Shown: positions 1,633 through 53,790 of the stretch, one piece after another | Layout of the letters: the number at the start of each line of letters is the position of its first letter | Position numbering within the stretch: position 1 is the stretch's first letter | NCBI GenBank assembly: GCA_024741835.1 | Contig: JAENRP010000134.1 | Location: 46,220 to 110,219, forward strand | Reading direction: 5' to 3' | Source: Diplocarpon mali | Taxonomy: Eukaryota > Ascomycota > Leotiomycetes > Helotiales > Drepanopezizaceae | DNA length: 64,000 bases | Program-made: the position numbers and the translations under genes | Notes under the pieces: model-generated | Database searches by the model: none | What the model was told of the DNA's origin: nothing | The model's input: only the letters and a program-made list of their open reading frames with translations

Positions 1633-2179
1633 TACCCCTTAGGTAAGAAGCAGCTCCTAGCTAGGCTCAGCTATAACTAGCGCTAGATCTAGTATATAAG
1701 ACTCCTTTATCATACTCCTTAGCTTTTAGAATAATGAAAATTGCTTAATAAAGCTATAATAAATAAAAGAGGAAGCGCGTTCCAGGTGCTTCCTCCTTAG
1801 AATAGAAGCTAAATCAGGTAACAAAGGAAAGTCAATAAAGGCAGCGCGCCTATAAAAGTACGCGTTTTTCCCTATAAAGCTTTCCTTCTTTATACTTCTT
1901 TAAATAATTACTTTAAAAAATGGAGAATAGTAATAATAACTCTAAGGAGCGCCCTACTAGGGCTACTACTATACGCTTCCTAATTATACTCCCTTACTCC
2001 TGCTAATAGCCTTATAACAAAGTCGTTATGCTTAAATATAACTTAAAGCTTTTTAGCGCAGCAGATAGTAAGAGGATGATAACGCGCCTAAGACGTTCGA
2101 TATAGTAATACCCTTAAGAGGGAGCGCGCCCCCTCCCCTCCCTGCCACCCCCTAGGCCGTAGTTCCTAGGATACCGGCG

Positions 2180-2790
2180 GTCCCCTCTATAGCTCCCTCC
2201 TCCTACCGCAAGCCAAAGCAGGGGCTAATAAGGAATATACTATATAAGGGATACGTTTAAAGCTTCCTAGCTAGGAAGTCGGCTGGCGTATGCTTTAATA
2301 GCATAGTAGGAGTACGCTACTTTTATTATACAAAAGGAGGCCACGCGTATTAAAAGCTTTCTATTAGCGCCTTAAAGGCATAGGAAGATTATATATTCTT
2401 ATTAGAAGAGAACGATAGTAATGCTATAGTACGTTCTCAAGCTCCCTTTAAGTAGTTTACCACTAATAAGCAGTTTAAGGCCTTGCCGCCATTAAGAGGA
2501 AGGTGAGAGAGGAGCTTCGGAAGGCGCGCTAGAAAGAGACAAAAGAGGTAGTATTATTAGAGGGTATATTAATTATAAGCTTTCTTATACTATAGCTAAT
2601 AGCTTCCTAGAACCAATTGGTTAAAAGCTCCTACTGCCACTAATTATAGCACCTCTTAGCCTTGCCGCCCGCCTTGCAAAGGCTTTTAAAGCTCCTGCGG
2701 CTGCTCCTATTATTGCTCCTAGCGTTGCTCCCCAGGCGGCTCCTAGGGCTATACCACCAAAGGAGTCAATTGCTTCTTAATAGAAATGCG
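2180..2790 (+). pseudogene. Antisense Cys-motif ORF of Copia-B (aORF)
   Basis: On the strand opposite to Copia-B pol, just inside its 3' LTR, a frame runs through PK..LI, then ARKSAG, then a Cys motif at about 2252-2350. The motif reads C-F-N-S-x5 followed by Tyr-x2-Tyr-x6-Tyr, where the Copia-A copies show Cys or Tyr at the same spacing. TAC/TAT are one G-to-A change from TGC/TGT. Downstream follows an acidic stretch near 2390-2430 and an Ala/Pro-rich tail near 2650-2780. The frame is interrupted only by TAA/TAG codons. No start codon can be fixed. Function unknown; the Cys spacing suggests a zinc-binding fold. It is homologous to the aORF of Copia-A (shared ARKS and CFNS blocks). Confidence 0.55.
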
Positions 2791-3169
2791 CCCTTATATT
2801 ATTTGCAAAGCTGCTAAAGGTTCTGATTATCTAAGGGAGTTAGTTTTAAGCCTCCTTATATATTAGTATAAGGAAATTAAACCCTATCTTACGCTTCCTT
2901 CCCATTCGCTATTATAAAGGAGATATAAAAAGGATTATAGAGCATTTAAAATGCTAGCTTCTCGACTAAACCTCTTACGTCTTAAAGGTTCAAAAGCTTA
3001 ATAAAGCTCTCGAACTTTTATCAAGGAAGGTTTTTAATAAGGCCATCGGCATGCATATCCTTAGTAGGGAGATAGGCCATTTGAAAGCTCCCTTTTTAGT
3101 GCTCCTATTATAGTTATATATTATATATATCAACGTATTAGAGCTTTATAAAAATCCTTTAAAAGTCTC

Positions 3170-4600
3170 TTATAATAAGCTGTATTATCTATTGATTATC
3201 GCAAAATATAAACTATAGAGCTTCTACCTTAAGCTCTATTTCCTTAAAGAACCTCTCTAAAGCCATTATCTCCTTTGCTATATGCGCTACTCCTAGGAGC
3301 TCAGCCTCTATAGTAGAAGTAGTAACTATCGGTTGCTTTAAGGCTTTCCAAATGATTGCTCCTTTAAATAAGAATATAATAAAACTATAAGAGGAGCGCC
3401 TTATTTTTAAATTATCTATAAAGGAAGCATCTGATAATACTACTAGGTTATTTGATCTATTAAATCGACTATAAGTGATTCTTAAGAAGCGTATACTAAA
3501 AAGGTAGCGAATTATCTAATTAATAGCTTTAAAGTATTCGAAGCTTAGGTTTATATAAAAATAAGATAGCTAGGCAATTATAAAAGCTATATCTAAGCGC
3601 AGTATAATAGCTATATATAAGGCAGAGCCTACTTTTTCCTAAAACTCCTTAATTCTCAAGTAGAGAGCTATTTTATAATTCTTTTTAAGTTCAAAGTAAG
3701 GGAGCGGCATACTAAGGAAACGCCCTATATTAAGGCTAAACCTCTTTGCCATCTTCTCAATATAAGCGTTATAAAGCAGAGTAATTATACCCTACTTCCT
3801 ATCTTAAGAGACTCTTACCCCTAAGAACCACTTAATATCTCCTATAGCTATCAATTCATATACTTTGCGCAGTCCCTCTATAGTCTTCTAAGCTTCTTCT
3901 ATATAAGAGGAGTAGTATATTACTTATATATTATTAATATAAAAGGCTATAAATACAGTCCTATCCTTATTAACGAATATATAAGGCTCCTTATTAAGAG
4001 GGGTAAGCTTCAAAGACTTTAAAGTACTAGTAAAATCCCTATACTAAAGCGCTAAGGAGTCTCGAAGGCTATATAAGACGCGATCGAGCTCTATTACCTT
4101 ATCTTTCTACTTTTAACTATTTAATAAGAAGCAAACAACTAGCGCGCTCTAAGGGTCTCTCTTAGCATTTATAAAGGCGTTAATAACATCGAACTATCGA
4201 AGCTTTATATCGAATTTAGCAACAATCGCCATTATAACCCTAAAAGATCTTAATATAAGCGTCGCAGTATAGGTAGAGAAAATAGAAGCTTCCTCCTAAA
4301 GATCTCCCCTTACTACTATTCTTGACTTAAAGCGGCTAATCTCCTTAAAGGAGTTTAGCTTATAGTTAAAGACCCACTTTAGTAGTATAGGCCTTATAGT
4401 AGCCTTGCTTCTATTGATCACTCTTTAGCAATTGCGCACTTTTAAGTTCCTGATCTTAGTTCTGACTTCCTCTTTAAATTGCTCTCTAAAAGGGTGATTT
4501 ACAAGCTCCTTCTAATAAGTTGGCGCTTTAGAAAGCTTGTCTTAAGGTGGAATTAAAAGGGTAGAGTTTCCTTTAAAGCTTTTAAATTAAGTTATCGCAG
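3170..4600 (-). pseudogene. Copia-B reverse transcriptase and RNase H remnant
   Basis: The minus strand reads as Copia reverse transcriptase (about 4600-3650) and RNase H (about 3600-3170). The polymerase motif expected as YVDD reads FYINNI near 3950, both Asp being changed to Asn by GAT/GAC to AAT/AAC. The RNase H segment keeps the recognisable block WKALKQPIVTTSTIEAELL followed by AKEIMAL. Several in-frame TAG/TAA codons replace Gln or Trp. Confidence 0.75.
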
Positions 4601-12609: not shown

Positions 12610-13320
12610 ATATTAAATTTGATAAGTCTCTCTTTTATAGTCTAGAAGCTAAGCGCGCAAACCCTATATTGCGCTAGGAATTTAAAATGACCCTTTAATT
12701 GATTAAAGAGGGAAAGGGAGCTTAGGATGCTAAGTTCGAAGGCATTTTCGAAGAATCGGAGCTTATTATAAGGCCGAATGCAATCGCTATAAAAGAAGCC
12801 GCTATATAAGAAGAGCCTATATTATAGACTAACGCTGCTCTATAGCCTTTAACTAATGATATAAAAGGCCTTAACTTAAATTTAAATTCTTTAAAAAACC
12901 TACTTAGAAACTTAAGGGTAGAAGCAAGTAAACTAGAAGCCACTTTGCCAGTCTTTAAAAAGACAAATGGCGACTAAAGCTTAAGGGTAATGATTCCTTA
13001 TAGAGGCCCTATTAAAGAAGGAACTATAGACGACTTTAAGGGAGTTTTTAAAGATAAGTTCTATAAGGCGATCGGCAGATCTTTAGCTACTATTTTATAT
13101 AAGAATAAAGATAGCTTAAGGGCTTTAAGATAAAGTCTTTAATTATAAAGGCAGGCCTTAGTAAACTTTAGTAGAAGGCTAGAGGTACTGCTGCTAAGAT
13201 CTAGGAGGAGCTTTAATAGTCTTATAAGAAGCGACTTAGTAAAAGGAGCAGGCCTTAATAATATAATACCTTAAGTTATAATACTAGCTTAAAGACTATA
13301 GGCTTAAGAGACAAAGCTAC
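12610..13320 (+). pseudogene. Copia-A copy 1, integrase to RT linker
   Basis: This stretch continues Copia-A copy 1 after the gag-only element and corresponds to 50167-50876 of copy 4. It ends in GCTAC (13316-13320), the target-site duplication of Copia-A copy 2, and continues at 34859. Confidence 0.8.
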
Positions 13321-13519
13321 TATGGTGCGGTCGGCTGGAGGGCCTTCATTAGGTCGCTTAGGAGGCTCGCAGAAGTAGGAGAAAATGATTGATTATATTA
13401 TTATCTAGTATATATATAATAAGGAGACTTCGGAAAGAAAAAGGGAGAGTCTATAACTTAGCAGGAGTCATATAAAGGGTCTTTAGAATAAGTGGAGACT
13501 CTGCCTATTCTGTATAATA
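13321..13519 (-). repeat. Left (3') LTR of Copia-A copy 2
   Basis: It starts TATGGTGCGGTCGGC and ends TGTATAATA, the reverse of the Copia-A LTR. The adjoining TACCCCCTAG is the complement of the polypurine tract. Confidence 0.85.
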
Positions 13520-13984
13520 TACCCCCTAGTTAGGTAATGCTCCTAGAATCGCTTAGCTATATAGATAAAATAAAAGAAAGAATATCAGTTATAAGGAAAA
13601 GAGGCTCTATCTTATATGCTGCCTCTCTAAAGGTTGTTCTTTCTAAAATAAAAAGGGTTATTATAGGCAATAAGTGCACTTAAGAATCTTCGCGATTCTA
13701 TACTAATGCTCTATTAGGCTTCTTATAGAGTATTTCTATTGCAGAGGTTCTCCTTCCCTTCTTTTAAAAACAACCCTCCTTTATTATTTAAAAATATCGT
13801 CTTTATACTAATAATTTTAAATATAGAAGGAACTCCTGCTTATTATAGCCCTGGCCGCCCTTGCAAAGTAAGACCCTTAGAGTCCCTATACCCTGCGTTA
13901 TACTAACTTTGTACTAGGTCGCTAGCGCTCTTATAGGAGCTATAACCTTAGCGCGCTTATCCTAGCGTTTACTAGGCAATAAGC

Positions 13985-14340
13985 CGCTGCTGCCGTCGTT
14001 GCTACCGCCCCTGCTGCTGCTGCCACTGCCGCTGCCGCCTAAGAGCCCTGCCCCTACTGCGCGTTATATGCCAGAGCCTATAATAGAATATAATAATGCG
14101 TATATATGCTGCATTGTACGCAGGAGCACTAGCAATTTCGATTGTTAATGCTTTAATAGTACCTTTAGTGCGCGTTATATCTATTATACTATACTAAGCA
14201 ATAGCTGCTAGTAGGCCAGCGGCCCTTTCCTTACCTCTTAAAAGGCTATTATATCGGCTCGCGCCTGCAGCGCCTTTAAAGAGGAGGTAGCACTACTGCT
14301 TAATATAGTAAAAGGTACGCTTTAGAGCTTTTATAATACG
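13985..14340 (+). pseudogene. Antisense Cys-motif ORF (aORF) of Copia-A copy 2
   Basis: The frame opposite to pol begins in a GCT/GCC/CCG-rich tract (13985-14050, Ala/Pro-rich) and reads PKSPAPTARYMPEP. A Cys motif follows at 14101-14208 (Cys or its RIP product at C-x2-C, then C-x-C-F-N-S, then C-x2-C-x6-C). Then come ASGP and FKEEVALLLN near 14275-14305. Only TAA/TAG stops occur. The same frame is found at the matching place in the other three Copia-A copies. No function is known to me. Confidence 0.6.
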
Positions 14341-14735
14341 TTTATTAAGTCTTATTAAGTTCTAGGCTAATTTTAAAAGATAGGAGCGATCGGACCCTAA
14401 TGCTAAGAGAGCCTGCCACTCCTGCGAGTAGTAGTATCGCTGCCTCCCTTGCTCTTAGCGTACTATTCCTATTTGCTCTTAGCCCCTTCGGCTCAGACCT
14501 ATTCGCCCCTATTGCCGCTACCGCTCTTATCCCCTCTGCCTCTGCTATCGCAGCCGCTACTATAGTCTTCTTATTTGTCTCCTTAGCCCTTGCTATTACT
14601 GCGCCTATCCTTACCGCTACCCCCGCCGCCCTTGCTCCTATTGCCTTTGCTATACCCCTTGCCTTTGCCCTTACTATCGCTAGTATTTTTACCAGCAGGC
14701 CTTTAGCTAAGGGAGTACTAATAGGCCTCTCTTAA
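14330..14735. repeat. Ala-rich low-complexity tract open on both strands (copy 2)
   Basis: A GCN-rich block gives long open frames on both strands. The plus strand (14400-14735) reads Ala/Pro/Leu-rich, and the minus strand reads Ala/Lys/Arg-rich. The equivalent block is open on both strands in copies 1, 3 and 4. It lacks the CAA, CAG and TGG codons that RIP turns into stops, which by itself could explain the openness. The ATG at 14400 is not conserved in the other copies. Confidence 0.5.
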
Positions 14736-15199
14736 GAGGAGATCTATATAGAGCTTTTAGCTATAGCATCTCGGCTCTTAACCTTAGCTAGGAGAATCTA
14801 AGAGAGGGTCGCGCCTTATAATAGCAGCTTAGGAACGTTACCTATTCTTATATTTTTAAAAAAGGAGAAGCTTTTGCAATGCGCTTTATAAGAGAAAATA
14901 AATAAATATAACTATAAGAGAGTAAGAGTTTATAAGTATAAGTCTCTTAGTAATAAGTGACTACTTGCTAGTAAGTGCAAGTTGCTAAACAATTATTTAA
15001 AAGCTCTAGAGGTTTAATAAACGAATAAAGCTTTTAAACTTCTAGCGGTTTAGGTTTTTAGTAAGCCTATCTGTATGCATTTCCTTAGTAGGGAAGTAGA
15101 TTATTTAAAAGCTTCCTCTCTAATACTCCTAGCGGATCTATATATTACTGATTTCGATATATTAAAGGCTTGTTTTAATCTTCTCATTCTCTATAATAA

Positions 15200-30987: not shown

Positions 30988-31935
30988 TTACAACTCCTCC
31001 GACCCCTCTTCCTCTGCGCTTAAGGAGATAAGCTCCAACTCCGTTCCGAAGCTGGAGCTCGCCTCCTGTCCACGCCCCCGCCTGGAACGACCCCGACCTC
31101 CTCTTACTGCCACTGGCGCCGCCCTACTGGCCGCTGCGCCTGACGCTACCCTCGCCACTGCAAGCCCCCCTCCCCCTACGAGAGACTCCGCTGCTATAGC
31201 AGTCTGCTCTACTAATGCAGCGATAGACCCTAAGAGGTCTAGCATAGTTCGGCTGGATTGCTCTAACCTCGCTAGCCGAGACTTGATAAGGTCGCCGCGC
31301 TCCTATTAGAAAGTCAGCGATTGATTCGATACTGATTCGGGTTGAACTTATAGCAACCGTCGCCTGGACCCCCTCTAGCTAGCTTGCTATAGCTTTAGCT
31401 ATAGAGCGGAGCTCCGCGAGGCTAGCACGCTCCAATTGGGAGCGGCTAGTCAGAGCCTCCGCGCTAGCCACTAGCAGGAGGTTGATAAGGACCTGGGCGC
31501 GCTGGACCGCCTCCTAATAGAGCATCTCGCGGTTCCCCGCCGAAACCGCCCGCGCGTTATTGTTGTCGCTACCGTCGTCCTCCTCTTACTGCTAGGCAGC
31601 CTCCCCCTGCCACTCCTCGAGGGCCGCGGACAGCGCCGCGAACTCCTCCCCGACATAGGAGGGAAGCTATAAATAAGTATCAGCGCGAATAGAACTCCAA
31701 AGTCGATTCAGAGTGCTTATAGGGATGCACTCCGCCTTCTGCTCCTAGCACTAGTAGCACTTTTTGCTACGTTTAGACTCGAACTCGCACTTGTGCGCAA
31801 TATCGCGCATAAGGCGCCGCACGCACCAGCAATAACAAACGCAGTAGGCCACCGCAAGGGCGCCCGACGGCAGGGGAATTGGCACTATGCGTATTAGACG
31901 CAATTCGACCCCGGACTAGGGCAAACTTACTTATA
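30988..31935 (-). pseudogene. Antisense accessory ORF of Gypsy-3 (Cys cluster, RGG-like tail)
   Basis: On the strand opposite to gag-pol, between the pol stop and the 3' LTR, about 310 codons of GC-rich coding-like sequence can be read. The N-terminal part (about 31935-31340) has few stops and contains a Cys cluster at 31843-31727: C-x-C-x-C-x-C-x11-C-x9-C-x2-C-x6-C. It continues with Ala/Leu/Glu-rich helical sequence (FAALSAALEEW, ELRSIAKAIA). Near 31350 the frame shifts by one base. The second part, open at 31245-30988 and readable from about 31310, has AALVEQTAIAAESL, then an Arg/Gly-rich stretch (RGGRGRSRRGRG) and an acidic end (EEEGSEEL). The start is unknown. A zinc- and nucleic-acid-binding protein is an inference from these motifs only. 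Confidence 0.65.
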
Positions 31936-32520: not shown

Positions 32521-32525
32521 TATAA

Positions 32526-34853: not shown

Positions 34854-34858
34854 GCTAC

Positions 34859-37000: not shown

Positions 37001-37036
37001 CAAAGCTATAGCTATAAGCTCTATACGGATCTCCTC

Positions 37037-37775
37037 TTAAGAGAGGCCTAGAGGCACTCCCTTAGCTAAAGGCCTGCTAGCGAATATACTAGCGATAGTA
37101 AGGGCGAAGGCGAAGGGTACAGCAAGGGCGATAAGGGCGAGGATAGCAAGGGCGGCGGCGATAGCAGGAGCAGCGATAGCAGGGGTAGAGATAGGGGAGA
37201 CGAAGGGAGATACTATAGCAGCAGCTATAATAGCAGCAGCGGACGGGATAAGAGCAGTAGCAGTAACGGCAAGGGCGAACAGGTTTAAGCCAGAGGGCTT
37301 AAGAGCGAATAGGAATAGTATGCCAAGAGCAAGGGAGGCAGTAATACTACTACTTGCAAGAGTAGCAGGCCCTTTTAATACTAGGGTTTAATCGCTCCTA
37401 TCTTTTAAAATTAGCTTAAAACTTAATAAGACTTGATAAATATACTATAGAAGCTTTAGAGCGCACCCTTTACTATATTAAGCAATAGTACTACCTCCTC
37501 CTTAAAGGCGCTGCAGGCGTAGGCTAATACAATAGCCTCTTAGGAGGCGAGGAGAGGTCCGCTGGCCTACTAGTAGCTATTGCTTAGCATTATATAATAA
37601 ATGCAACGCATATTAAAGGTGCTATTAAAGCATTAACAATTGAGATTACTAGTACTCTCGCGTGCGATATAACGCACGCACGCGTTATCGCGCTCTATTA
37701 TAGGCTTAGGCATACGGCGCATAGCAGGGGCGGGGCTCTTAGGTAGCGGCAGGGGCGACGGCAGCGGCAGCTTAT
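37037..37775 (-). pseudogene. Antisense Cys-motif ORF and Ala-rich tract of Copia-A copy 1
   Basis: Opposite to pol, PKSPAPAMRRMPKP is followed by the Cys motif at 37680-37573, where copy 1 preserves the first Cys of C-V-R-[C/Y], then C-x-C-F-N-S and C-x2-[C/Y]-x6-[C/Y]. FKEEVVLLLN (near 37507-37478) follows. The block at about 37400-37037 is the Ala-rich tract open on both strands. Stops are TAA/TAG only. Confidence 0.6.
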
Positions 37776-38235
37776 TGCCTAGCAAGCGCTAGGACGATTG
37801 CGCCAGGGTTGCAGCTCCTAAAGGAGCGCTAGCGACCTAGCGCAAAGTTAGTATAACGTAGGGTATAGGGACTCTAAGGGTCTTACTTTGCAAAGGCGGC
37901 CAGGGCTATAATAAGCAAGAGTTCCTTTTATATTTAAAAATTATTAGTATAAAGATGATATTTTTAAATAATAAAGGAGGGTTGTTTTTAAAAGAAGGGA
38001 AAGAGAACCTTTGCAATAGAAATACTCTATAGAAAGCCTAATAGAGCATTAGTATAGAATTACAAAGATTCTTAAGCGCGCTTATTGCTTATAGTAACCT
38101 TTCTTATTTTAAAAGGAACGACCTTTAAAGGGGTAGTATATAAGATAGAGCCTCTTTTCCTTATAATTGCTATTCTTTCTTTTATTTTATTTATATAACT
38201 AAGCGATTTTAAAAGCATCGCTTAATTAAGAGGTA

Positions 38236-38433
38236 TATTATATAGAATAGGCAGAGTCTCTACTTATTCTAAAGACCCTTTATATAACTCCTATTAAGTT
38301 ATAGACTCTCCCTTTTCTTTCTAAAGTCTCCTTATTAGATATATACTAGATAATAATACAATTAATCATCTTTATCTATATTAGCGAGCCTCCTAAGCGA
38401 CCTAATAAAGGCCCTCCAGCCGACCGCACTACA
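38236..38433 (+). repeat. 3' LTR of Copia-A copy 1
   Basis: The 198 bp end GACCGCACTACA and are followed by the GCTTC duplication at 38434-38438. Confidence 0.86.
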
Positions 38434-39163: not shown

Positions 39164-39361
39164 TGTGGTGCGGTCGGCTGGAGGGCCTTCATTAGGTCGC
39201 TTAAGAGGCTCGCAGAAGTAGAAGAAGATGATTGATTATATTATTATCTAGTATATATATAATAAGGAGACTTCGGAAAGAAAAGGGAGAGTTTATAACT
39301 TAATAGGAGTTATATAAAGGGTCTTTAAAATAAGTAGAGACTTTGCCTATTTTATATAATA
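39164..39361 (-). repeat. Left (3') LTR of Copia-A copy 3
   Basis: It starts TGTGGTGCGGTCGGC, the unmutated form of this LTR end. The other end is heavily RIP-altered (TTTTATATAATA). Confidence 0.86.
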
Positions 39362-39824
39362 TATCCCTTAATTAGGCGATACTTTTAAAATCACTTAGCT
39401 ATATAGATAAAATAAAAGAAAGAATAGCAGTTATAAGAAAAAGAGGCTTTATCTTATATATTGCCCCTTTAAAAGTTATTCCTTTTAAAATAAGAAAGGT
39501 CGCTATAAGCAATAAGTGCGCTTAGGAATCTTTGCAATTCTATACTAGTACTCTATTAGGCTTCTTATAGAGTATTTCTATTACAGAGGTTCTCCTTCCC
39601 TTTTTTTAAAAATAACCTTCCTTTATTATTTAAAAATATCGTCTTTATATTAATAATTTTTAAATATAAAAGGAACTCTTACTTATTATAGCCTCGGCCG
39701 CCTTTATAAAGTAAGACCCTTAGAGTCCTTATACCTTGTATTATATTAACTTTGCGCTAAGTCGCTAGCGCTCCTTTAGGAACTGCAACCTTAGCGCAAT
39801 CGTCCTAGCGCCTGCTAAGTAATA

Positions 39825-40576
39825 AGCCGCCGCTGCTATCGCCCTTACCGCCGCCGCTACCCCTACTGCCGCTGCCGCCACCTAAGAGCCCTGCTCCTAT
39901 TGCGTACTATATGCCTAAGCTTATAATAGAGTATAATAATATATATATATATTATATTGCATATAAGAGTACTAGCAATCTCGATTATTAGTGCTTTAAT
40001 AGTACCTTTAGTATATATTACATTTATTATATAGTATTAAGTAATAGCTGCTAGTAGGCTAGCAGACCTCTCCTTACCTCTTAAGAGGCTGTTATATCGG
40101 CCTGCGCCTATAGTACCTTTAAAGAGGAGGTAGTACTACTGCTTAATATAGTAAAAGGTATGCTCTAGAGCTTCTATAGTACATTTATTAAGTCTTATTA
40201 AGTTTTAAGCTGATTTTAAAAGATAGAAGCGATTAGACCCTAGTGCTATAAGGGCCTGCCACTCTTACGAGTAGTAGTATTACTACCTCCCCTGCTCTTA
40301 GTATACTATTCCTATTCGCTCCTAGCCCCTTTGGCTTAGACCTATTCACCCTTATCGCTACTGCTGCTCCTATCCCCTTTGCTTCTACTATCGCAGCTGC
40401 TGCTATAGTCTCCCTATTTATCTCCTTAGCCCTTGCTATCGCTGCGCCTATTCTTACCGCCGCCCCTACCACCTTTGCTCCTATCGCCTCTGCTGCACCC
40501 TTTGCCTTCGCCTTTGCTATTGCTAGTATATTTGCCAGCAGGCCTCTGGCCAAGGGAGTGCTAGTAGGCCTCTTTT
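39825..40576 (+). pseudogene. Antisense Cys-motif ORF and Ala-rich tract of Copia-A copy 3
   Basis: The frame opposite to pol starts in a CCG/GCT-rich tract (39825-39895) and reads PKSPAPIAYYMPKL. The Cys motif follows at 39944-40051, here largely Tyr through RIP but with CFNS and the final Cys kept, then FKEEVVLLLN near 40113-40142. From about 40215 to 40576 comes the Ala-rich tract open on both strands (minus-strand frame 40553-40233). No indels occur relative to copy 2 within the Cys motif. Confidence 0.6.
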
Positions 40577-41049
40577 AAAAGGAGATCTATATAAAGCTCT
40601 TAGCTATAGTATCTTAACTCCTGGCCTTAGCTAGGAGAATTTGAGAAAGGGTCGCGCCTTATAATAGTAGCTTAAGAACATTACCTATTTTATATTTTTA
40701 AAAAAGGAGAAGCTTCTATAGTACGCTTTATAAGAGAAAATAAATAAATATAATTATAAAAGAGTAAGAGCTTATAAGTATAAGTCTTTTAATAATAAGT
40801 GACTACTTATTAATAAGTGCAAGTTGCTAAACGATTATTTAAAAGCTTTAGAAGTTTAATAAATAAATAAAGCTCTTAAACTTCTAGCGGTCTAGGTTCT
40901 TAATAAGCCTATCTGCGTATATCTCCTTAATAAAGAGGTAGATTATTTAAAAGCTTCCTTTCTAATACTTTTAATAGATTTATATATTACTAATTTCGAT
41001 ATATTAAAGGCTTATCTTAATCTTCTTATTCTTTATAACAATTAGATAA

Positions 41050-42160: not shown

Positions 42161-43479
42161 CTTAAAGATCCCTTTATATAATTAGCTATAATCGGCACTT
42201 TAAAAGCTTGCTAAAGCTATTGACCTTATAGGTAAAAACCTATTTTAATAGTATTAGTAAGGGCTTTAAGTAATCCTTTTATACAATTCTCTAGCAACTT
42301 TAAGATTCTAAATTCCTAATTTCTTAGCGCCCTCCTTTCTTAAATCATTTGCTAAAAGGGTACTTCTTTAAGTCTAGCTATCCTTTTAGAAGCTTTAGTA
42401 AAGAGCCTTAGTGCTATAAGCGGTTAAGAGACTACGCTCTATCCTTTGCTTAACTATCAATTGCAGCTTTAATAATTATATAAACTATCAAATAGTCCTT
42501 CCTATCCTCCCTTATTTATTTATTTATTTAAAAGGTTGATATAAACTCTTATATATATAAGGAGTAAGGTAGATTAATATTACTTTAAGAGAGTATATGC
42601 TTTAAAGTAGTAGCGTATACTTTTAAAGTCTTCTATTGCTTAATACTTAAGTATCTTATCCTCTTTTACCTAAGAAGAGGGAGTTCCTCTTTGCGCTTTT
42701 CTCTATAGGTCTTTTCCTCTATTTTTATTATTGCTAAAGGTTCCTTTAAGAGTCTAGGTAACTCTATCTCTTAAGCTTATAGTCTTTAAGCTAGTATTAC
42801 AACTTAAGGTATTATATTATTAAAGCCTACTCCTTTTACTAGGTCGCTTCTTATAAGACTATTAAAGCTCCTCTTAGATCTTAGCAATAATACCTCTAGC
42901 CTTTTACTAGAGTTTACTAAGGCTTGCCTTTATAATTGAAGACTTTATTTTAAAGCCTTTAAGCCATCTCTATTCCTATATAAAATAGTAGCTAAAGATC
43001 TGCCGATCGCCTTATAGAACTTGTCTTTAAAGACTCCCTTAAAGTCGTTTATAGTTCCTTCTTTAGTAGGGCCTTTATAAGGAATTATTACCCTTAAGCT
43101 TTAATTGCTATTTGCCTTTTTAAAGACTAGCGAAGTAGCTTTTAGTTCGCTTACTTCTACCCTTAAGTTTCTAAGCGGGTCTTTTAAAGAATTTGGATTT
43201 AAGTTAAGGCCTTTTATATTATTAGTTAAAGGCTATAGAGTAGCATTGGTCTATAATATAAGCTCTTCTTATATAGCGGCTTCTTTTATAGCGATTGCGT
43301 TCGGCCCTGCGATAAGCTCTAATTCCTTAAAAATGCTTTCGAACTTAGCGTCCTAAGCTCCCTCTCCCTCTTTAATTAATTGGAAGGTTGTCTTAAGTTC
43401 CTAGTACGATATAAGGTTTGCGCGCTTAGCTTTTGGACTATAAAAGAGAGACTTATTAAATTCAATATTATAAGTTGTT

Positions 43480-46340
43480 ATTACTCGCTAAAGTATAGGA
43501 ACTTAGATTTTATAAATATTAAAGGTAATATATCTAATTAAGTAACTTAAGTACCTTTATAATTCAATTTTAAAGGTTTAGTAGTCCCTTCCTACCTCCT
43601 TCTCTCTAATTAAAAGGTATGCGCAAGCGCTATATATATAAATATAACTCCAATTAGGCTTTAAGCTTTCTATTATCTATTTAATAAGCAGCGGCTTATA
43701 AAATCGAAAATACTACTTAAACTAACTATAAAGAGCCTTACTTAATAAGATTATCTTTTTCTTAATAAGTAGGAAGATATTATAAAGGTATATAGTAGCC
43801 TTTATAACCTTTGGCCAAAGGCTTACTAAAAGCCTAGCGTAGATCCTTATTTTAATAAAGCATTTAATTAACTCCTTTCTTACTTACTCTACGCCTCTAT
43901 TTAATTAGTATATATAAGTAAGAGTAAGCTTTAAATCGATTCCCTCCTCTTTTACCTATCTTTAGTACTCTATAAGAGAGTCTTTCCTTAGGAAGATCAC
44001 TAAAGTGTTATTATCTTACCTAATCTTGCAAATTGAAAGCCTATATTAGCGTTTTACCTATGCTTCAAAGGCCTAAAGGACCTTTATAACTATATCTCTA
44101 TCCTTCGATCTTAGTAAGAATATCTAAAGTATACTACTATACTTGTCCTTAATTAAAAGAACTTATAAGCAACTATTATATAAGTTATTTAAAAAGTTAA
44201 AGAGATCTTAAGAGATCTTAAAGAAGGGCTTTAAAGATCGGTTCTTAAAAGTAGCATAAGAAATAACTTACTTAATAGACGCTATTACGTATATAAGGCA
44301 CTCTAGCCTTTGTATTCCCTTGATTTTTACTCCCTTAGCGCACTTGACTAGCACTTAAAGAGCCTTTACGCCTAAGTGGCTAGCGCAAAGGTGCTAAGTA
44401 TATGCGTTATTATCTTATATCCTAATAGGTATATAGCTAAACTAGAACTTATTATAAAGTGTTATCTTAACTATAGGAAATGCTATTAAGGTAGAGAAGT
44501 TATATTAAAGTATATTTAAGAGATTTAAATAGTTGATAGGCTTATATTTAAAGAAAACGAGATTATGGCAATACTTTAATTAAGCTCGCTTTATAGAATC
44601 TCTAATACTCCTAAAGCGCAAAGTAAGGTCTACTTTAAAGTACTAAAAACCCTTATCCGCAAAGAGCCTCTTTAAGATAATATTAATAGTAAACTCCTTT
44701 ATAATAGCAATATTATAAAGCGTTATCCTTATAAGAGAGCCATTATACTATAAAAGAGAGTCTGCTATATATCTATTACCTCTTTTAATAATTAGAAGTC
44801 TTAAGGTACTTGCTTTAATATATTGCTGCGAGTCGCTAAAAGGCTTAAAGGTGCTTGTAATAAGTAAATCCTTCGAATTAATAATATAAGTAGCTGCGCA
44901 ATTGTTAAGGAGCGTACTTAAGGAAAGCGAGTAGTGTTCTAGCTTAAAGAGGTAGTAGATATTGAATAATTCTTTAAAAGCGTCAAAGGCAAAGGGATCT
45001 ATTACTATAAAGACTGGTGAGTTCTCCCTTTTGCTTAAATTATCCTTTTTAAAGGCTGAAGCCTTTCTCTTAAATTTATTAATTGCTATTATTATAATAT
45101 CATTTTCCTTAAGCCATACTTAAAGACCTTTGAATTGGTCTCTTGCGTTTAACGCCTTTTGTATTTATAAGACCTCCTCTTGCAAAGGGAGAACCTTTAT
45201 ATTTTCCTTACGCCTATCTATAGTATATAATAGTTTCCGATAGTCCTAGGGCTTCTAATAATGATTTTTAAAGCCTCTATAAGGGCACTTAGGCCTAATC
45301 TTCCTTCTAAAGCTTATAGAGCGATTTTAGGAGCTGCTTGCTAGAGCCTGCGAAGGTGTTTTAGCATCTAAGAGAGACTTTTAAGTAGTAAAAACTACTA
45401 GCCCTTTATTATTAATCGCTCTATTAGATTCAATGCTTGCTAAGGCGCGGCTTAGCTGCATTAAGTCGTACTTATATAAGGTTCCTATCTACTTATTAAT
45501 AATGATTTCCTCCTTTAAGCGAGTCGCTTAACTTAAATTAATCTTTATTATAACTAAGTCTAAAAAGTTAATAACTCCTAGTCTCCCTTTAATCTTAAGG
45601 AGATTATATTATTCTATTAAGTAGTACGCCTCCTGCTACTCCTAGATCTACTGCTAAGTATTAGTTCTTCTAGTTTTACCTTAGTATAATATATCGTAGT
45701 ACTAGAGCCTTATCTAAGACTAAATAGCCTTATCGGAAGGCGTAATATCACACTTTAAAATAGATACTAGGCTTTAGAGTAAGAGTTGCTGGTTTACTAA
45801 ATTAATATATAGGTTGTTAGCAGGGGTTCCACTTATAAGAGTATCTCTATTAGGTATTAAAGAGGAGAGCTTCTTAGCTTGGATTTGTACTTAAGCTATT
45901 GCAGAAGCTAAGAGCGTTCTATCAACAGTCTTAAAGACCTATTTTAAGAATAGTTTATAGTATTTACATTAGGTCTTCTAAGTCTCCTTGCGAATATAGT
46001 ACTCCTTTATTAGGATTTTATATTCATCTTTAATATCCTTATATAAAGCCTATAGAAAAGGAGCCTTTAATAGGTCTCCTAAGGGAAAGCGGGCGTAAAT
46101 CTATTTAAATAGAGTCGCTATATACTTTTTATATAACCTTATATATGCTATGCAAAGGTTAGCTATTTCTAGTTCCTTAAGCTCTTATATAAAAGGAGCT
46201 TAAGGCTCGGTCTTTATAATTGACTTAAATAGGAGTCTTAAATTAGTAAAAATAGTAATATTATAAAGCTTAGTGAAGAATATATATTTACTAAACCACT
46301 TCACTTAAAAGGCAAAGGTATTAAAGCAAGGCTTAAAGAT
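43480..46340 (-). pseudogene. Copia-A copy 3 gag, protease and integrase
   Basis: The minus strand follows the same order as copies 1 and 4: gag, protease with the NCAA block, then integrase. Frames are broken by RIP-type stops throughout. Confidence 0.7.
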
Positions 46341-46563
46341 ACTTAAAGATTTAGATATATTAAATAGAGTCTAGTGAAAAAGGTTAGGTATATAAATAAA
46401 GTTTATAAATAAGGTTCGATTGGAAATTAGAGATTTATTAATTAAAAATAAAAGTCCTTTAAGTTGTTATAAATACTCGAAAAGTCGGTTAGGAGCTCGA
46501 AAGGCCCTTTAGCCAGTTGTATGCGAAGAGAAAGCATATTAAAATGCTTATAGGACTTATAAC

Positions 46564-46761
46564 TATAGTACAGTTAGCTAAAGGGCCTTTATTAGGTCGC
46601 TTAAGAGGCTCGCAAAAGTAGGAAAAGATAATTGATTATATTATTATCTAATATATATATAGTAAAGAGACTTCGGAAAGAAAAGGGAGAGTCTATGACT
46701 TAGCAGGAGTCACGTGGAGGGTCTCCAGAATAAGTGGAGACTCCGCCTATTCTGTACGATA
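46564..46761 (-). repeat. Right (5') LTR of Copia-A copy 3
   Basis: 198 bp; ends CTGTACGATA and is followed by GAAAG. On the element strand the ACGTGACTCC block is intact. Confidence 0.86.
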
Positions 46762-46870
46762 GAAAGCTTAGCTCAAAGCTCTCTCCATTCTAAGGAAGCA
46801 AGGTTTTCATACGTTCTTTTAACCTTGTTATAGCTAAGGAGGTTTTAAAGCGTACCTTCCTTAGCGCTAG
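46762..46870 (-). pseudogene. Copia-B fragment between copies 3 and 4 (gag to protease linker)
   Basis: This 109-bp piece of the host element lies between the GAAAG duplication of copy 3 and the GCTAG duplication of copy 4 (46866-46870). Across copy 3 it joins in frame to the protease region at 39163. Confidence 0.7.
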
Positions 46871-47068
46871 TGTCGTGTAGAATGGGCGGAGTCTCCACTT
46901 ATTCTGGAGACCCTCTACGTGACTCCTACTAAGTCATAGACTCTCCCTTTTCTTTCCGAAGTCTCCTTACTATATATATATTAGATAATAATATAATCAA
47001 TCATCTTTATCTATATTAGCGAGCCTCTTAAGCGACCTAATAAAGGCCCTTTAGCCGACCGCACCATA
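46871..47068 (+). repeat. 5' LTR of Copia-A copy 4
   Basis: Starts TGTCGTGTAGAATGGG and ends GACCGCACCATA. Confidence 0.87.
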
Positions 47069-47289
47069 GTTATAAGCCCTATAAGCACTTTAATATGCTT
47101 TCTCTTTGCATACAACCGGCTAAAGGGCCCTTCGAGCTCCTAACCGACTTTTCGAGTACTTATAACGACTCAAAGGACCTTTATTTTCAATTAATAAATC
47201 TCTAATTTCCGATCGAACCTTATTTGCAAACCTTATTTATATACCTAACCTTTTTCACTAGACTCTATTTAAAATATCTAACTCTTTAA

Positions 47290-50160
47290 GCATCTCCAAG
47301 CCTTGCTTTAATACCTTTGCCTTTTAAGTAAAGTAGTTTAATAAATATATATTCTTCGCTAAGCTCTATAATATTACCATTTTTGCCGATCCGAGACTCC
47401 TATTTAAGTCAATTATAGAGACTGAGCCTTAAGCTCCTTCTATATAGGAGCTTAAGGAACTGGAAACGGCTAACCTTTGCGTAGTATACGCGAGGTCATA
47501 TAAAGAGTATGCAGCGACTCTATCTAAATAGATTTACGCCCGCTTTCCCTTAGGAGATCTGTTAAAGGCTCTTCTTCTATAGGCTTCTTATAAGGATATT
47601 AAGGATGAATATGAAATCCTAATAAAGGAGCACCACCTACGCAAGGAAACTTAGAAGACCTAATGCAAATACTATAAGCTACTCTTAGAATAGGTCTTTA
47701 AGACCGTCGATAGAACGCTCCTAGCTTCTGCGATAGCTTAAGCATAAATCCAAGCTAAGAAGCTTTCCTCCTTAATATCTAATAGAGATACTCCTATAAA
47801 TGGAACCACTACTAATGACCCGCATGCTAATTTGGTTAACTAGCAACTCTTACTCTAAGGCCTAGTATCTATCTTAAAGTGTGATATTGCGCCTTCTAAT
47901 AAGGCTATTTAGTCTTAGATAAGGCTTTAATACTGCGATATACTACGCTAAGGTAAAACTAGAAGAATTAATACTTAGTAGTAGATCTAGGAGTAGTAGG
48001 AAGCGTACCGCTTAGTAGAGTAATATAGTCTTCTTAAGATTAAAGGGAGACTGAGAGTTACTAACTTTTTAGACTTAATTGTAATAAAGATCAATCTGAG
48101 TTAGGCGACTCGCTTAAAGGAGGAAATTATTACTAACAAGTAGATAGGAACCCTATGCAAGTACAACCTAATGCAGCTAAGCCGCGCCCTAGCAGGTATT
48201 GAATCTAATAGAGCGATCGATAATAAAGGGCTAGTAGTTTTTACTACTTAAGAGTCTCTCCTAGATGCCGAAACCCCTTCGCAAGCTCTAGCGAGCAGCT
48301 CCTAAAATCGCTCTATAAGCTCTAGGAGGGAGATCAGGCCTAAGTGCCCTTATAGAGGCTTTAAAAATCACTATTAGAAGCCCTAGGACTATCGGAAACT
48401 GTTATATACTATAAATAGGCGTAAGGAAAATATAAAGGTTCTCCCCTTGCAAGAGGAGGTCCTATGAATACAAAAGGCTTTAAACGCAAGAGACCAGTTC
48501 AAGGGTCTCCGAGCATAGCTTAAGGAGAATGATATTGCGGTAATAGCAATTAATAAATTTAAAGGAAAGGCTTCAGCCTTTAAGGAGGATAGTTCAAGTA
48601 GCAAAAGGGAGAACTCACCAGTCTTTATAATAATAGATCCCTCTGCCTTTAACGCTTTTAAAGAATCGTTTAACGTCTACCACCTCTTTAAGCTAGAACG
48701 CCACCCGCTCTCTTTAAGTACGCTCCTTAATAATTGCGCAGCTACTCATATTATTAATTCGAAGGATTTACTTATTGCAAGCACCTTTAAGCCTTTTAGC
48801 GACTTGTAGCAATATATTAAAGTAAGTACCTCAAGACTCCTAATTATTAGGAGAGGTAATAGATATATAGCGGACTCTCTTCTATAGCGTAATAGCTCTC
48901 TTATAAGGATAACGCTTTGCAATATTGCTATTATAAAGGAGTTTACTACTAATATCATCTCAAAGAGGCTCCTTGCAGATAAGGGTTTTTAGTACTCTAG
49001 GGTAGACCTTACTTTACGCTCTAAGAGCATTAGAGATTCTATAAAGCGAGCTTAGTTAAAGCATTACTATAATCTCATTTTCTTTAAATATAAGCCTATT
49101 AACTATTTGGATCTTTTAAATATACTTCAATATAACTTCTCTACTTTAATAGCGTTCCCTATAGCTAAGACGACGCTCTATAATAGGTTCTAGTCTAACT
49201 ATACACCTACTAAGGTATAGGATAATAACATATACACTTAGCACCTTCGCGCTAGCTACCTAGGCGCAGAGGCTCTTTAAGCGCTAGTTAAGTGCGCTAG
49301 GGGAGTGAAGATCAGGGGAATACAAAGGCTAGAGTGCCCTATATGCGTAGTAGCATCTGCTAAGCAAGTTATTTCTTACGCTACCTTTAAGAACCGATCT
49401 CTGAGGCCCTTCTTTAGGATCTCTTAAGATCTTTTTAACTTTTTAAATAATTTGTATAATAGTTGCTTATAGGTTCTTTTAATTAAGGATAAGTATAGCG
49501 GTATGCTTTAGACGTTCCTACTAAGATTAAAGGGCAGAGACGTAGTTATAGAGGTCCTTTAGGCCTTTGAAGCATAGGTGAAACGCCAATATAGGCTTTC
49601 CATTTGCAAAATCAGATAAGATAATAATACTTTAGTGATCTTCCTAAGGGAAGACTCTCTTATAGAGTACTAGAGATAGGTAAAAGAGGAGGGAATCGAT
49701 TTAGAGCTTACTCTTGCCTATATATACTAATCTAATAGAGGCGTAGAGCGAGCAAGAAGGGAGTTGATTAAACGCTCTATTAAAATGAGGATCTATACTA
49801 GGCTTTTAGCAAGCCTTTGGCCGGAGGTTGTAGAGGCTGCTATATACCTTTATAATATCTCCTTACTTACTAGGAAGAAGATGATCTTACTAAGCGAGGC
49901 TCTCTATAGTTGGTTTAAGTAGTATTTTCGATTTTATAAGCTGCTGCTTATTAAGTAGATGACGGCAAGCTTAAAGCCCGACTAAAGTCGCATTTATACA
50001 TATAGCGCTTGCGTATACCCTTTAATTAAGGAGAGGGAGGCGGGAAGGGACTGCCGAACCTTTAAAATTGAACTATAAGGGCACTTAGGTTACTTAATTA
50101 GATATATTACTTTTAATGTTTATAGAATCTAGGTTCCTATGCTCTAGCAAGTAATAACGA
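47290..50160 (+). pseudogene. Copia-A copy 4 gag, protease and integrase
   Basis: Gag ends with a knuckle-like block (KCPYRGFKNHY, near 48337-48370). The protease active site reads NNCAATHIINSKDL near 48730, so the catalytic Asp is Asn. Integrase follows with AKQVIS.ATFKNRSLRPFF and, near the end, YLYNISLL. Nearly all stops are TAG/TAA at Gln or Trp positions. Confidence 0.75.
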
Positions 50161-51469
50161 CTTATAATATCGAATTCGATAAGTCTCTCTTCTATAGTCC
50201 AGAAGCTAAGCGCGTAAACCTTATATTGCGCTAGGAACTTAAGATAACCCTCCAATTGATTAGAAAGGGAGAGGGAGCTTAAGACGCTGAATTCGAAGGC
50301 ATTTTCGAGGAATCAGAGCTTATCGCAAGGCCGAACGCAATCGCTGCAGAAGAAGCCGCTATATAGGAAGAGCCTATATTATAGACCAACGCTGCTCTAT
50401 AGCCTTTAACTAATGATATAGAAGGCCTTAACTTAAATCCAAATTCTCTAAGAGACTTGCCTAGAAACTCAAGGGTAGAAGCAAGCGAATTAGAAGCCAC
50501 TTCGCTAGTCTTTAAGAAGGCAAATAGTAACCAAAGCTTAGGGGTAATAATTCCTTATAGAGGCCCTATTAAAAAAGGAACTATAGATAACTCTAAGGAA
50601 GTCTTTAAAGATGAATTCTATAAGGCGATCGGCAGATCTTTAGCCGCTATTTTACATAAGAATAGAGATGGCTTAAGGGCTTTAAGATAGAGTCTTCAGT
50701 TATAAAGGCAGGCCCTAGTAAACTCTGGTAGAAGGCTAGAGGCACTGCTACTAAGATCTGGGAGGAGCTCTAACAGTCTTATAAGAAGCGATCTAGTAAG
50801 AGGAGTAGGCCTTAATAATATAATACCTTAAGTTATAATACTAGCTTAAAGACTATAGGCTTAGGAGATAGAGCCACCTAGACTCCTAGAGGAACCTCTA
50901 GTAATAATAAAAATAAAGGAGGAGACCTATAGAGAAAAGCGCAAGGAGGAACTCCTTCTTCTTAAGTAAAAGAGGATAAGACGCTTAAGCGTTAAGTAAT
51001 AGGAGACTTCAAAAGTGTATACTACTGCTCTAGAGCATATGCTCTTTTAAAGCAATATTAATTTACCTTGCTCCTTATATGCGTAGGAGTTTATATCGAC
51101 CTTCTAGGCGAATGAATAAACAAGGGAGGATAGGAAGGACTATTTAATAGTTTATGCAATTGTTAAAGCTGCAGTTAATAGTTGGGCAAAGGATAGAGCG
51201 CAGTCTCTTAACCGCCTATAGCACTAAGGCTCTCTACCGAAGCCTCCGAAAGGATAGCTAGACCTAGAGAAGCACCCTTTTAGCGAACGATTTAAGGAAG
51301 AAGGGCGCTAGGAGATTAGGAATTTAGAATCTCAGAGTTGCTAGAGAATCGTGCAAAGGGATTACTCAAAGCCCCTGCCGATACTATTAAAATGGGTTTT
51401 TACCTATAAGGTCAATAGCTCTAGCGAGCTTCTAAAGTGCCAATTACAGCTAGTTATGCAAGGGGATCT

Positions 51470-52580
51470 TTAAAATAAAGCTTCAATTTTCTCAACCTAC
51501 GCAGCTACGCTTATAGCAAGGTCTTTTAAGGTACTAATAGCACTTGCCGCGTACTTTAATATAGAAGTAAAGCAGTTCAATATCATTAACGCATTTGTCA
51601 ACGCTTCTAGAGACCTAAGGAGTGCTCTAATCATATGCTTCCTATTAGATGGCTTTAAGCGCCCTAGTATGGTAATAGAACTAGACCACGCGCTCTACAG
51701 GCTAAAAGACTCTTTAGCGCTATAGTATAAGAACTTCGCAGGAATGCTTAAGGGCCTTTAACTCAAGCTATTAGGCAAGGAGCCTTGTATTTTCATAATA
51801 AAGGATCGTATAGTCTTTATAGCATTTTATATTAACGATATTCAAGTGTTATATAAGGCCTTTAACCTAGATCGGGCGACTCGTCTAATTGAAGACCTAA
51901 AGAGGGCGTATAAGCTTACTATTATAGGAGATATCTCTTAGTTCCTTAGAGTAAGGATTATTTAGGATAGGAAGGCAAAGAGGATCTCCTTAGTTTATAA
52001 TACCTATATTAAGAAGATCGCTTAAAAGTTTGAAGCTAATATAAGGAGAGTGCCTAGTACTCTACTACTAAAGAAGGAGTTTGTTAAGAACTTAAGGCAA
52101 GCTTTCCTAGAAAAGGTAAAGGAGTACTAAGAGAAAATAGACTTTATTCTTTATATAGCGATTATAATACACCTAAATATTGCATTCGCAGCCTTTTAAC
52201 TGTCTTTCTTCTTAACTAATCCAAGCTCTAAGTACCTCTTAGCCGCAGATTAGACGCTTTAATACCTATATAGCACGCGCTTCTTAGGAATTGCCTATAG
52301 CTTCGAGGCTAGGGAATACCAACTAGTTGCGTCTTTAGATGCTTCTTTCAAAGATGACTAAGAGACCCGCAGATCCTCCTAAGGATACGTCTTCTTCCTA
52401 TTTAAAGGACCGATTATTTGGAAAGCGAATCGCCAAGCGACTATCATACTCTCCTCTACTAAAGTAGAACTCTATAGTATGGTTTCTACTGCGAAGGAGA
52501 TAATAGCTATAAAACGCCTCTTTAAGGAGATTTGCATAGACTCCCTCTTTAAATAGAATATATATTGCAATAACTAATAG
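51470..52580 (+). pseudogene. Copia-A copy 4 reverse transcriptase and RNase H
   Basis: RT reads STYAATLIARSFKVLIAL at its start and FYINDIQVLY at the polymerase motif, where YVDD became YIND. RNase H contains WKANRQATIMLSSTKVELYS. This is the clearest Copia-A RT in the window. Confidence 0.8.
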
Positions 52581-53057
52581 ACGATTCGGCTAATTGTTAT
52601 AAAGAATGAGAAGATTAAGATAAGCCTTTGATATATCGAAATTAGTAATATATAGATCCGCTAGGAGTACTAGAGAGGAAGCTTCTAGATAATCTACCTC
52701 CCTACTAGGGAGATGCACGCAGATAAGCTTACTAAGAACCTAGACTGCCAGAAGTTTAAGAGCTTCATTTGTTTATTAAACCTTTAAAGCTTTTAAACAA
52801 TCGTTTAATAACTTATACTTGCTAGCGAGTAGTCACTTATTACTAGGAGACTTATACTTACAAGCTCCTATTCTCTTACAGTTATATTTATTTGTTTTCT
52901 TTTATAAAGCGCACTGTAGAAGCTTCTCCTTTTTTAAAAATATAAGAATAGGTAATATTCCTAAGCCGCTATTGCAAGGCGCGACCCTTTCTCAGATCCT
53001 CTTAGCTAAGGCCAGGAGCCGCGAAGCCATAGCCATAAGCTTTATATAGATCTCCTC

Positions 53058-53790
53058 CTAAGAGAGGCCTGAAGGCACTCCCTTGGCCAGAGGCCCGCTG
53101 GCGAACACACTAGCGATAGCAAGAGCAAAGGCAGGAGGTGCGGTAAGGGCAGCGGCAAAGGCAGGAGCAGCGATAGCAGGGGCCGGGAAGATAAAGGGAG
53201 ATACAAAGGGGTTAGCAGCAGTAGCGGTAGGGATAGGAGTAGCGGTAGCAGCGAGTAAGGGAAACGAGGCGGCAGAGGATAGGCCAGCGGCAAACGCAAA
53301 TAGGATGCTAAAAGCAGAGGAGGTAGTAACACTACCACTTATAGGAGTAGTAAGCCCTCCTAGTACTAGGGTCCGATCGCTCCTATCTTTTAAAAATCAG
53401 CCTAGAACTTAATAAGACTTAATAAGACATATTATAAAAGCTCTAAAGCGCACCCTTTACTACATTTAGTAGTAGTGCCACCTCCTCCTTAAAGGCGCCG
53501 CGGGCGCAGGCTAATACAACAGCCTCCTAAGAGGCGAGGAGAGGTCCGCTAGCCTGCTAGCAGCTATTACTTAGCACTATATAATAAATGCAACGCGCAC
53601 TAAAGGTGCTATTAAAGCATTGATAATCGAGATTGCCAGTGCTCTTGCGTATAATATAACGCATATACGCATTATCGCGCTTTATTATAGGCTTAGGTAT
53701 ATAGTGCGCAGCAGGGGTAGGGCTCTTAGGTGGCGGCAGCGGCGGCGGGGGTAGCGGCGGCAGTAGGGATAGCAGCAGCGGCTCATTACT
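53058..53790 (-). pseudogene. Antisense Cys-motif ORF and Ala-rich tract of Copia-A copy 4
   Basis: Opposite to pol, the frame runs from a GC-rich Pro/Ala tract (53790-53715) through PPPKSPTPAAHYIPKP. The Cys motif is at 53667-53560 (with QCFNSTFSARC intact and C-x2-[Y/C]-x6-C), followed by ASGPLLAS and FKEEVALLLNVVKGAL near 53493-53446. Interruptions are TAA/TAG only. Two 1-bp length differences from copy 2 follow, then the Ala-rich tract (53402-53058) that is open on both strands. This copy is the least damaged version of the C-terminal half. Confidence 0.62.

What the first reader, a model, noticed from the sequence alone, without database searches (positions are those of the whole stretch)
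1640..53790. A related antisense Cys-motif gene in Copia and Gypsy retrotransposons
In Copia-B (2252-2350), all four Copia-A copies (14101-14208, 37573-37680, 39944-40051, 53560-53667) and Gypsy-3 (31727-31843), a frame opposite to gag-pol and just inside the 3' LTR encodes closely spaced cysteines. The Copia copies share C-x2-C ... C-F-N-S-x5-C-x2-C-x6-C with Cys or its RIP product Tyr at each place, ARKS/RRST before it, and FKEE-[VA]-LLLN after it in Copia-A. In Gypsy-3 the end of the cluster is C-x9-C-x2-C-x6-C. In the Copia copies the frame is broken only by TAA/TAG, as if RIP hit a real coding sequence. The same position and strand in two superfamilies suggests an accessory gene that was passed between them or recruited repeatedly. 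A role in transposition control, silencing evasion or nucleic-acid binding is speculation. I do not know of a described family.
Basis: partly seen in the sequence, partly recalled or inferred. Interest (0 to 1): 0.88.

Follow-up and report, generated by a model that had tools for sequence, protein, structure and literature searches.

The report
Spliced antisense Cys-cluster gene in retrotransposons
Three families of jumping genes in a Diplocarpon-like leaf-blotch fungus each carry, on the strand opposite to their main genes, an extra intron-containing gene for a cysteine-rich protein; it looks like a real but mostly mutated gene whose job is unknown.

Summary
Across the copies examined the Copia pattern is C-x2-C-x12-C-x8-C-x2-C-x6-C and the Gypsy-3 pattern C-x2-C-x11-C-x9-C-x2-C-x6-C. 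They belong to intron-containing genes lying antisense between the pol stop and the 3' LTR. A lightly mutated Copia-B copy (L097) has an open 116-aa Cys exon; it and the Gypsy-3 frame match five automatic gene models of Diplocarpon coronariae (E 1.3e-38 to 2.8e-11). Gene-model exon joints coincide with GT-AG introns on the antisense strand. In Copia-A, 13 of 17 transversion sites in the Cys exon fall at third codon positions, and 59 of 63 gap runs inside exons are multiples of three, against 2 of 31 outside. The two Copia versions are homologous. The Copia-Gypsy link is not shown: profile comparison fails, and similarity beyond the cysteines is near chance (32 of 300 shuffles). I infer a zinc-dependent nucleic-acid-binding accessory protein made from a spliced antisense RNA; no transcript or function was tested. 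Precedents are Botrytis brtn and plant antisense aORFs.

The parts
1484..1630 (-). 3' LTR of Copia-B (the other LTR is 55764-55910; other elements are nested inside)
   Evidence: 147-bp direct repeat, 93% identical
1920..1970 (+). Copia-B antisense gene, exon 1 (starts MENSN)
   Evidence: L097 alignment and gene models P0003 and P0004
2018..2428 (+). Copia-B antisense gene, exon 2, holds the Cys cluster; followed by GTACGT-type donor at 2429
2243..2350 (+). Cys cluster of Copia-B, C-x2-C-x12-C-x8-C-x2-C-x6-C
2479..2563 (+). Copia-B antisense gene, exon 3 (charged, Lys/Arg/Glu-rich)
   Evidence: intron boundaries match the gene-model joints
2611..2834 (+). Copia-B antisense gene, exon 4 (Ala/Pro-rich end)
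13847..14321 (+). Copia-A (first copy, fragment) antisense Cys exon; cluster 14101-14208
   Evidence: mapped from the copy alignment; exon borders approximate
14369..14757 (+). Copia-A (first copy) antisense next exon
   Evidence: frame
31722..31890 (-). Gypsy-3 antisense Cys exon (cluster 31727-31834); donor follows the last Cys; upstream border not known
31352..31668 (-). Gypsy-3 antisense exon 2
   Evidence: match to P0001; intron boundaries
30988..31303 (-). Gypsy-3 antisense exon 3 (Arg/Gly-rich tail)
   Evidence: match to P0001
30609..30818 (+). chromodomain-like C-terminus of Gypsy-3 pol (sense), end of pol
   Evidence: sense translation; chromodomain recognised from memory, no profile run
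37460..37907 (-). Copia-A (second copy, fragment) antisense Cys exon; cluster 37573-37680
37015..37412 (-). Copia-A (second copy) antisense next exon
39690..40165 (+). Copia-A (third copy) antisense Cys exon; cluster 39944-40051; upstream border not known
40212..40600 (+). Copia-A (third copy) antisense next exon; a putative intron of about 44 nt before it shifts the frame
53447..53918 (-). Copia-A (fourth copy) antisense Cys exon; cluster 53560-53667
53036..53398 (-). Copia-A (fourth copy) antisense next exon; pol stop at 52787

Best explanation
Two Copia families and one chromodomain-type Gypsy family in this fungus each carry one accessory gene on the antisense strand, between the pol stop and the 3' LTR. 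Supported by the results here: the gene reads from the 3' LTR side towards pol; it has small GT-AG introns on the antisense strand; it encodes a protein with a six-cysteine cluster (two C-x2-C pairs 21 residues apart and x6-C at the end) followed by a charged or helical region and an Ala/Pro- or Arg/Gly-rich end; in Copia-A it shows signs of protein-level constraint from before RIP destroyed most copies. Inferred: transcription starts in or next to the 3' LTR; the introns survive because the RNA that is reverse-transcribed is the sense RNA, in which they are not introns; the cysteines bind zinc; the protein binds nucleic acid and acts on the element itself (expression, packaging or silencing), in the way antisense accessory proteins of some retroviruses do.
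For: Gene models: P0001 (Gypsy-3, E 1.3e-38) and P0002-P0005 (Copia-B, E 2e-37 to 2.8e-11); P0002 holds the complete cluster. Lightly mutated copies: L097 (Copia-B, GC 0.525, 116-aa open Cys exon); L098 (Copia-A, 501 bases, GC 0.69), whose frame is open through the cluster and has one stop, beyond it. Introns: Copia-B second-intron donor keeps GT in 20 of 21 rows; Gypsy-3 second intron has GTAAGT in 4 and ATAAGT in 15 of 19 rows, acceptor AG in 16 of 19. Constraint: Copia-A Cys exon 13 of 17 transversion sites at position 3 (binomial P 3.4e-4); Gypsy-3 exons 8 of 11 (P 0.009); Copia-A gap runs multiples of three in 59 of 63 inside exons against 2 of 31 outside. Both Copia-A exon frames have the fewest stop columns of six frames (11 against 17-35; 7 against 8-66).
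Against: No transcript was seen; the D. coronariae proteins are automatic models, and P0001, P0003, P0004 and P0005 splice out or lack part or most of the cluster. In the Copia-A next exon transversions are as many at position 1 as at 3 (16, 5, 16), its synonymous fraction barely exceeds that of another frame (0.36 against 0.34), and a sense frame has nearly as few stop columns (8 against 7). In Copia-B exon 2 a sense frame has one stop column fewer (10 against 11); in Gypsy-3 exons 2 and 3 a sense frame has fewer (7 against 12; 5 against 6). Gypsy-3 synonymous fraction is no better in the antisense frame than in a sense frame overall (0.27 against 0.26) and worse around exon 2 (0.30 against 0.40). 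Between L097 and L098 nucleotide identity is 19, 25 and 20 of 37 at codon positions 1, 2, 3. The best whole-region profile match between the Copia families is in a sense frame (E 1.1e-5), the antisense frame second (E 0.0018). Zinc and nucleic-acid binding rest on the pattern alone: no Pfam match above cut-off and no relevant PDB match.
Confidence: 0.82

Rival explanations
1. The Copia and Gypsy antisense genes descend from one gene passed between superfamilies.
For: Same strand and place, Cys-cluster exon upstream of a charged or helical part, same spacing between the two C-x2-C pairs (21) and same x6-C end; in the best Copia-B/Gypsy-3 pair a gapless alignment puts five of six cysteines, CVR and F-x-S in register; the mean score over 19 copies is reached by 2 of 300 full shuffles. 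The related Gypsy-2 lacks the module: its alignment to Gypsy-3 ends about 50 bp before its 3' LTR, against about 1350 bp in Gypsy-3.
Against: hhalign finds nothing in register (A-G E 0.078, 4 columns; B-G E 0.0017, 13 columns, off register). Keeping Cys in place, 32 of 300 shuffles reach the Copia-B/Gypsy score; Copia-A/Gypsy 79 of 300; P0001 against P0002 and P0003 at chance (61 and 79 of 300).
Confidence: 0.3
2. Convergence: two unrelated Cys-cluster genes were captured separately by a Copia ancestor and by Gypsy-3.
For: Little beyond cysteine spacing is shared; the third cysteine sits one residue differently (x12/x8 against x11/x9); the parts after the cluster differ, and Gypsy-3 has an intron right after it.
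Against: Same strand, place and exon order would then be a coincidence.
Confidence: 0.45
3. No protein: the frame is an accident of sense or non-coding sequence, and gene models on it are software artefacts; only antisense RNA, if anything, matters.
For: All proteins are automatic models; several sense frames are also fairly open; the best whole-region Copia-A/Copia-B profile match is in a sense frame.
Against: The sense pol stops (2982 in Copia-B by L097; 52787 in the Copia-A copy) lie outside, so no sense gene is expected there. In the Copia-A Cys-exon region the antisense frame has the highest synonymous fraction (0.62 of 14 sites and 0.93 of 3 sites, against at most 0.28 and 0.64); gap runs and introns.
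Confidence: 0.1

Closest known systems
brtn, antisense gene of Boty-like Gypsy elements of Botrytis cinerea (Zhao et al. 2011, Virology 417:248; paper not held, seen as a reference-list title and in passages of PMC8365987 and PMC4227169)
   Same: Additional antisense gene in a fungal Gypsy element with a chromodomain (CHROMO named in a passage of PMC4227169); Botrytis is in the same order, Helotiales (recalled)
[quoted passage not shown] PMC7264820, abstract and passages)
   Same: Place, strand, and presence in many copies; function unknown
   Different: Plant elements, Gypsy type for the first three (recalled); the word zinc does not occur in that paper
HTLV-1 antisense gene HBZ (recalled; the PMC7264820 passage names only an antisense promoter in the HTLV 3' LTR)
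   Same: Antisense gene transcribed from the 3' LTR and spliced (recalled)
   Different: A bZIP protein of a retrovirus (recalled), no Cys cluster
Zn2Cys6 (Gal4-type) zinc cluster, PF00172 (pattern recalled)
   Same: Six cysteines in two halves with C-x2-C, fungal
   Different: Gal4 type has x6 between second and third Cys (recalled); here x11 or x12; no Pfam hit to it

Membership tests
Antisense aORF between pol and 3' LTR | Lies between pol stop and 3' LTR | tested here: met
   Copia-B gene 1920-2834, pol stop 2982, LTR to 1630; Copia-A pol stop 52787; Gypsy-3 pol end 30818, LTR from 32211
Antisense aORF between pol and 3' LTR | Opposite strand to gag-pol | tested here: met
Antisense aORF between pol and 3' LTR | Present in many copies, not one capture | tested here: met
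   Copia-A 295 candidate places, 150 scored, 150 matched; Copia-B 120 of 120; Gypsy-3 384 candidates, 150 scored, 151 matches, often two per copy. Copies lacking the gene were not counted
Antisense aORF between pol and 3' LTR | Antisense transcript | not testable with these tools
   no RNA data
brtn | Protein sequence similarity | not tested
   sequence not available; paper not held
Zn2Cys6 zinc cluster | C-x2-C-x6-C spacing of the first half (recalled) | tested here: not met
   x12 in Copia, x11 in Gypsy-3
Zn2Cys6 zinc cluster | Pfam profile match | tested here: not met
   no PF00172 hit at E up to 10 with the L097 exon or up to 1 with window frames
CCHC zinc knuckle | C-x2-C-x4-H-x4-C (recalled) | tested here: not met
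   the Copia-B end is C-x2-C-x4-H-x1-C; no Pfam hit

The most novel reading that the evidence does not exclude
One intron-containing antisense gene for a Cys-cluster nucleic-acid-binding regulator has moved between Copia and Gypsy superfamilies inside a fungal lineage and is kept as an accessory module that lets LTR elements persist under RIP and silencing.
Probability: 0.25. Interest if true: 0.8.

Novelty: new variant of a known kind. Interest (0 to 1): 0.6.

Why it matters
Antisense accessory genes are among the least understood parts of LTR retrotransposons. Here is a case in fungal Copia elements with signs of coding constraint, introns that only make sense on the antisense strand, and a definite candidate domain, matched at over a hundred places in one genome, some only lightly mutated. 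It makes the question of what such genes do testable, and it warns that automatic annotation can list them as 'hypothetical proteins' with the Cys cluster spliced away.

Tried and rejected
Rejected: that the frame merely mirrors a sense gene (pol stops lie outside), though sense frames are often about as open. Rejected as a test: fixed-stop runs over whole regions without exon borders, which do not single out the antisense frame in the Copia families. TGA scarcity is not specific to the antisense frame. No result: Pfam (only sub-threshold hits), PDB sequences (best E 0.12, unrelated), a second protein search with P0001 (only itself). Adding L098 to the Copia-A alignment failed in the part I looked at (its row is empty), so the L098 columns are not used. 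Copies used were parts of what was listed: Copia-A 38 of the 39 other places plus window copies, Copia-B 19 of 39, Gypsy-3 19 of 39, of which L021 was dropped.
Full report
What is there. The window lies in a 49.4-Mb genome of 676 contigs. Most of it is a nest of RIP-degraded LTR elements: in 2-kb bins TA/AT is about 1.5-1.8 up to 56 kb, except two bins at 26-30 kb (1.25 and 1.06), and 0.77-1.08 beyond. The protein relatives found are all from Diplocarpon coronariae (Helotiales); that the genome is this species or a close relative is inference. Copia-B runs from its 3' LTR at 1484-1630 to its other LTR at 55764-55910, with other elements inserted in between. Two Copia-A elements sit head to head (39156-46771 and 46808-54442), with two fragments at 13298-17015 and 34853-38441. 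Gypsy-3 spans 24955-32526 and ends pol in what I recognise from memory as a chromodomain.

The cysteines. Codon tables over the copies show which cysteines are old: Copia-A 42 copies and Copia-B 20 copies, Gypsy-3 19 copies (one more, L021, was dropped because of a duplicated match). At each cluster position the only alternative to Cys is Tyr, the product of RIP on a Cys codon. The pattern is C-x2-C-x12-C-x8-C-x2-C-x6-C in both Copia families and C-x2-C-x11-C-x9-C-x2-C-x6-C in Gypsy-3.

Coding evidence. L097 is a Copia-B copy with GC 0.525; its antisense frame is open for 116 residues through the whole cluster. A protein search with it returned four D. coronariae proteins, P0002 to P0005, and the Gypsy-3 frame returned a fifth, P0001. 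Exon joints of these models fall on GT-AG introns of the antisense strand: three in Copia-B and two in Gypsy-3. Copia-A has a putative intron of about 44 nt with a GTACGT-type donor, which moves the frame from +2 to +1. Independent signs agree: before it frame +2 has the highest synonymous fraction, after it frame +1 has the fewest stop columns (7 against 8-66) and, by a hair, the highest synonymous fraction (0.36 against 0.34). Transversions, which RIP does not make, fall at third positions in 13 of 17 sites of the Copia-A Cys exon and 8 of 11 sites in the Gypsy-3 exons; in the Copia-A next exon they do not (16, 5, 16). Gap runs inside Copia-A exons are multiples of three in 59 of 63 cases, outside in 2 of 31; these count copies, not events, and the exons hold low-complexity sequence. 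Copia-B has too few transversions (6) to test.

Stops. In the Copia-A Cys-exon frame 0 of 313 stop cells are TGA, in Copia-B 1 of 164, in the first two Gypsy-3 exon frames 0 of 51 and 0 of 119, in the third 2 of 44; TGA is also rare in the other frames, so this shows RIP rather than coding. Four Copia-B columns of exon 2 are stops in all 20 copies; three are sense codons in L097, and by the alignment I read the fourth as Gln in P0003 and P0004. The one stop of the L098 piece lies after the cluster; all 42 Copia-A copies also have a stop there, but in differing stop codons, so it need not be original. One Copia-B place of 120 shows no stop over the 78-residue query; by hand count 32 of 150 scored Copia-A places, the window's own included, show none over the 80-residue query.

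Against. In Copia-B exon 2 and in Gypsy-3 exons 2 and 3 some sense frame has fewer stop columns than the antisense frame (10 against 11, 7 against 12, 5 against 6), and the Gypsy-3 synonymous fraction does not favour the antisense strand. For Gypsy-3 and Copia-B the case therefore rests on the gene models, the open L097 exon, the introns and, for Gypsy-3, the third-position count.

Relations. Copia-A and Copia-B clusters are homologous: hhalign E 3.5e-5, 0 of 100 shuffles in either scheme; 14 of 37 residues identical, 0 of 2000 codon shuffles; mean Smith-Waterman 0 of 300 full and 1 of 300 Cys-keeping shuffles. This is expected, since they also align over part of pol at about 63% DNA identity. 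Whole-region comparison prefers a sense frame (E 1.1e-5; by its coordinates it overlaps the Cys exon) over the antisense one, and identity by codon position is flat, so the between-family comparison does not by itself tell the strand. Copia against Gypsy-3 is unresolved, as told under rivals.

Mechanism. The anatomy fits a spliced antisense mRNA starting in or near the 3' LTR. Introns can stay because reverse transcription copies the sense RNA. The cluster is most likely a zinc-binding fold, and the charged, Arg/Gly-rich or Ala/Pro-rich remainder suggests a nucleic-acid or chromatin partner. I put about 0.88 on a real coding gene, 0.45 on zinc-dependent nucleic-acid binding with a regulatory role, 0.3 or less on one origin for all three.

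Known work. [quoted passage not shown] original not held). Two surveys of fungal LTR elements do not contain the word antisense in their main text (PMC5445492, PMC3248453, term searches only). Library searches listed (20 of 46, 7 of 7, 12 of 15 and 12 of 36 papers) none whose title or abstract start describes such a gene in fungal Copia elements; the library holds only open-licence papers.

Noticed in passing
17016-23376 against 24955-32526: Gypsy-2 (LTRs 17016-17310 and 23082-23376) has only about 50 bp between the end of its alignment to Gypsy-3 and its 3' LTR, so it lacks the 1.3-kb antisense module.
   Followed up: partly
39156-54442: Two Copia-A elements lie head to head, giving a 15-kb near-palindrome at about 86% identity.
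   Followed up: no
1484-1630 and 55764-55910: The Copia-B LTRs are 54 kb apart because several other elements inserted into it.
   Followed up: partly
57038-58364: A stretch that matches its own reverse complement over about 1.3 kb at 66%, in the less RIP-affected flank.
   Followed up: no
L098 (G000:C6:372500-373000): A Copia-A copy with GC 0.69 (501 bases) beside copies with GC 0.34-0.48, near a contig end.
   Followed up: no
P0001, P0003, P0004, P0005: Automatic D. coronariae gene models of this gene splice out or lack all or part of the Cys cluster; in P0001 a RIP-made TAG used as acceptor may be the cause (inference).
   Followed up: partly
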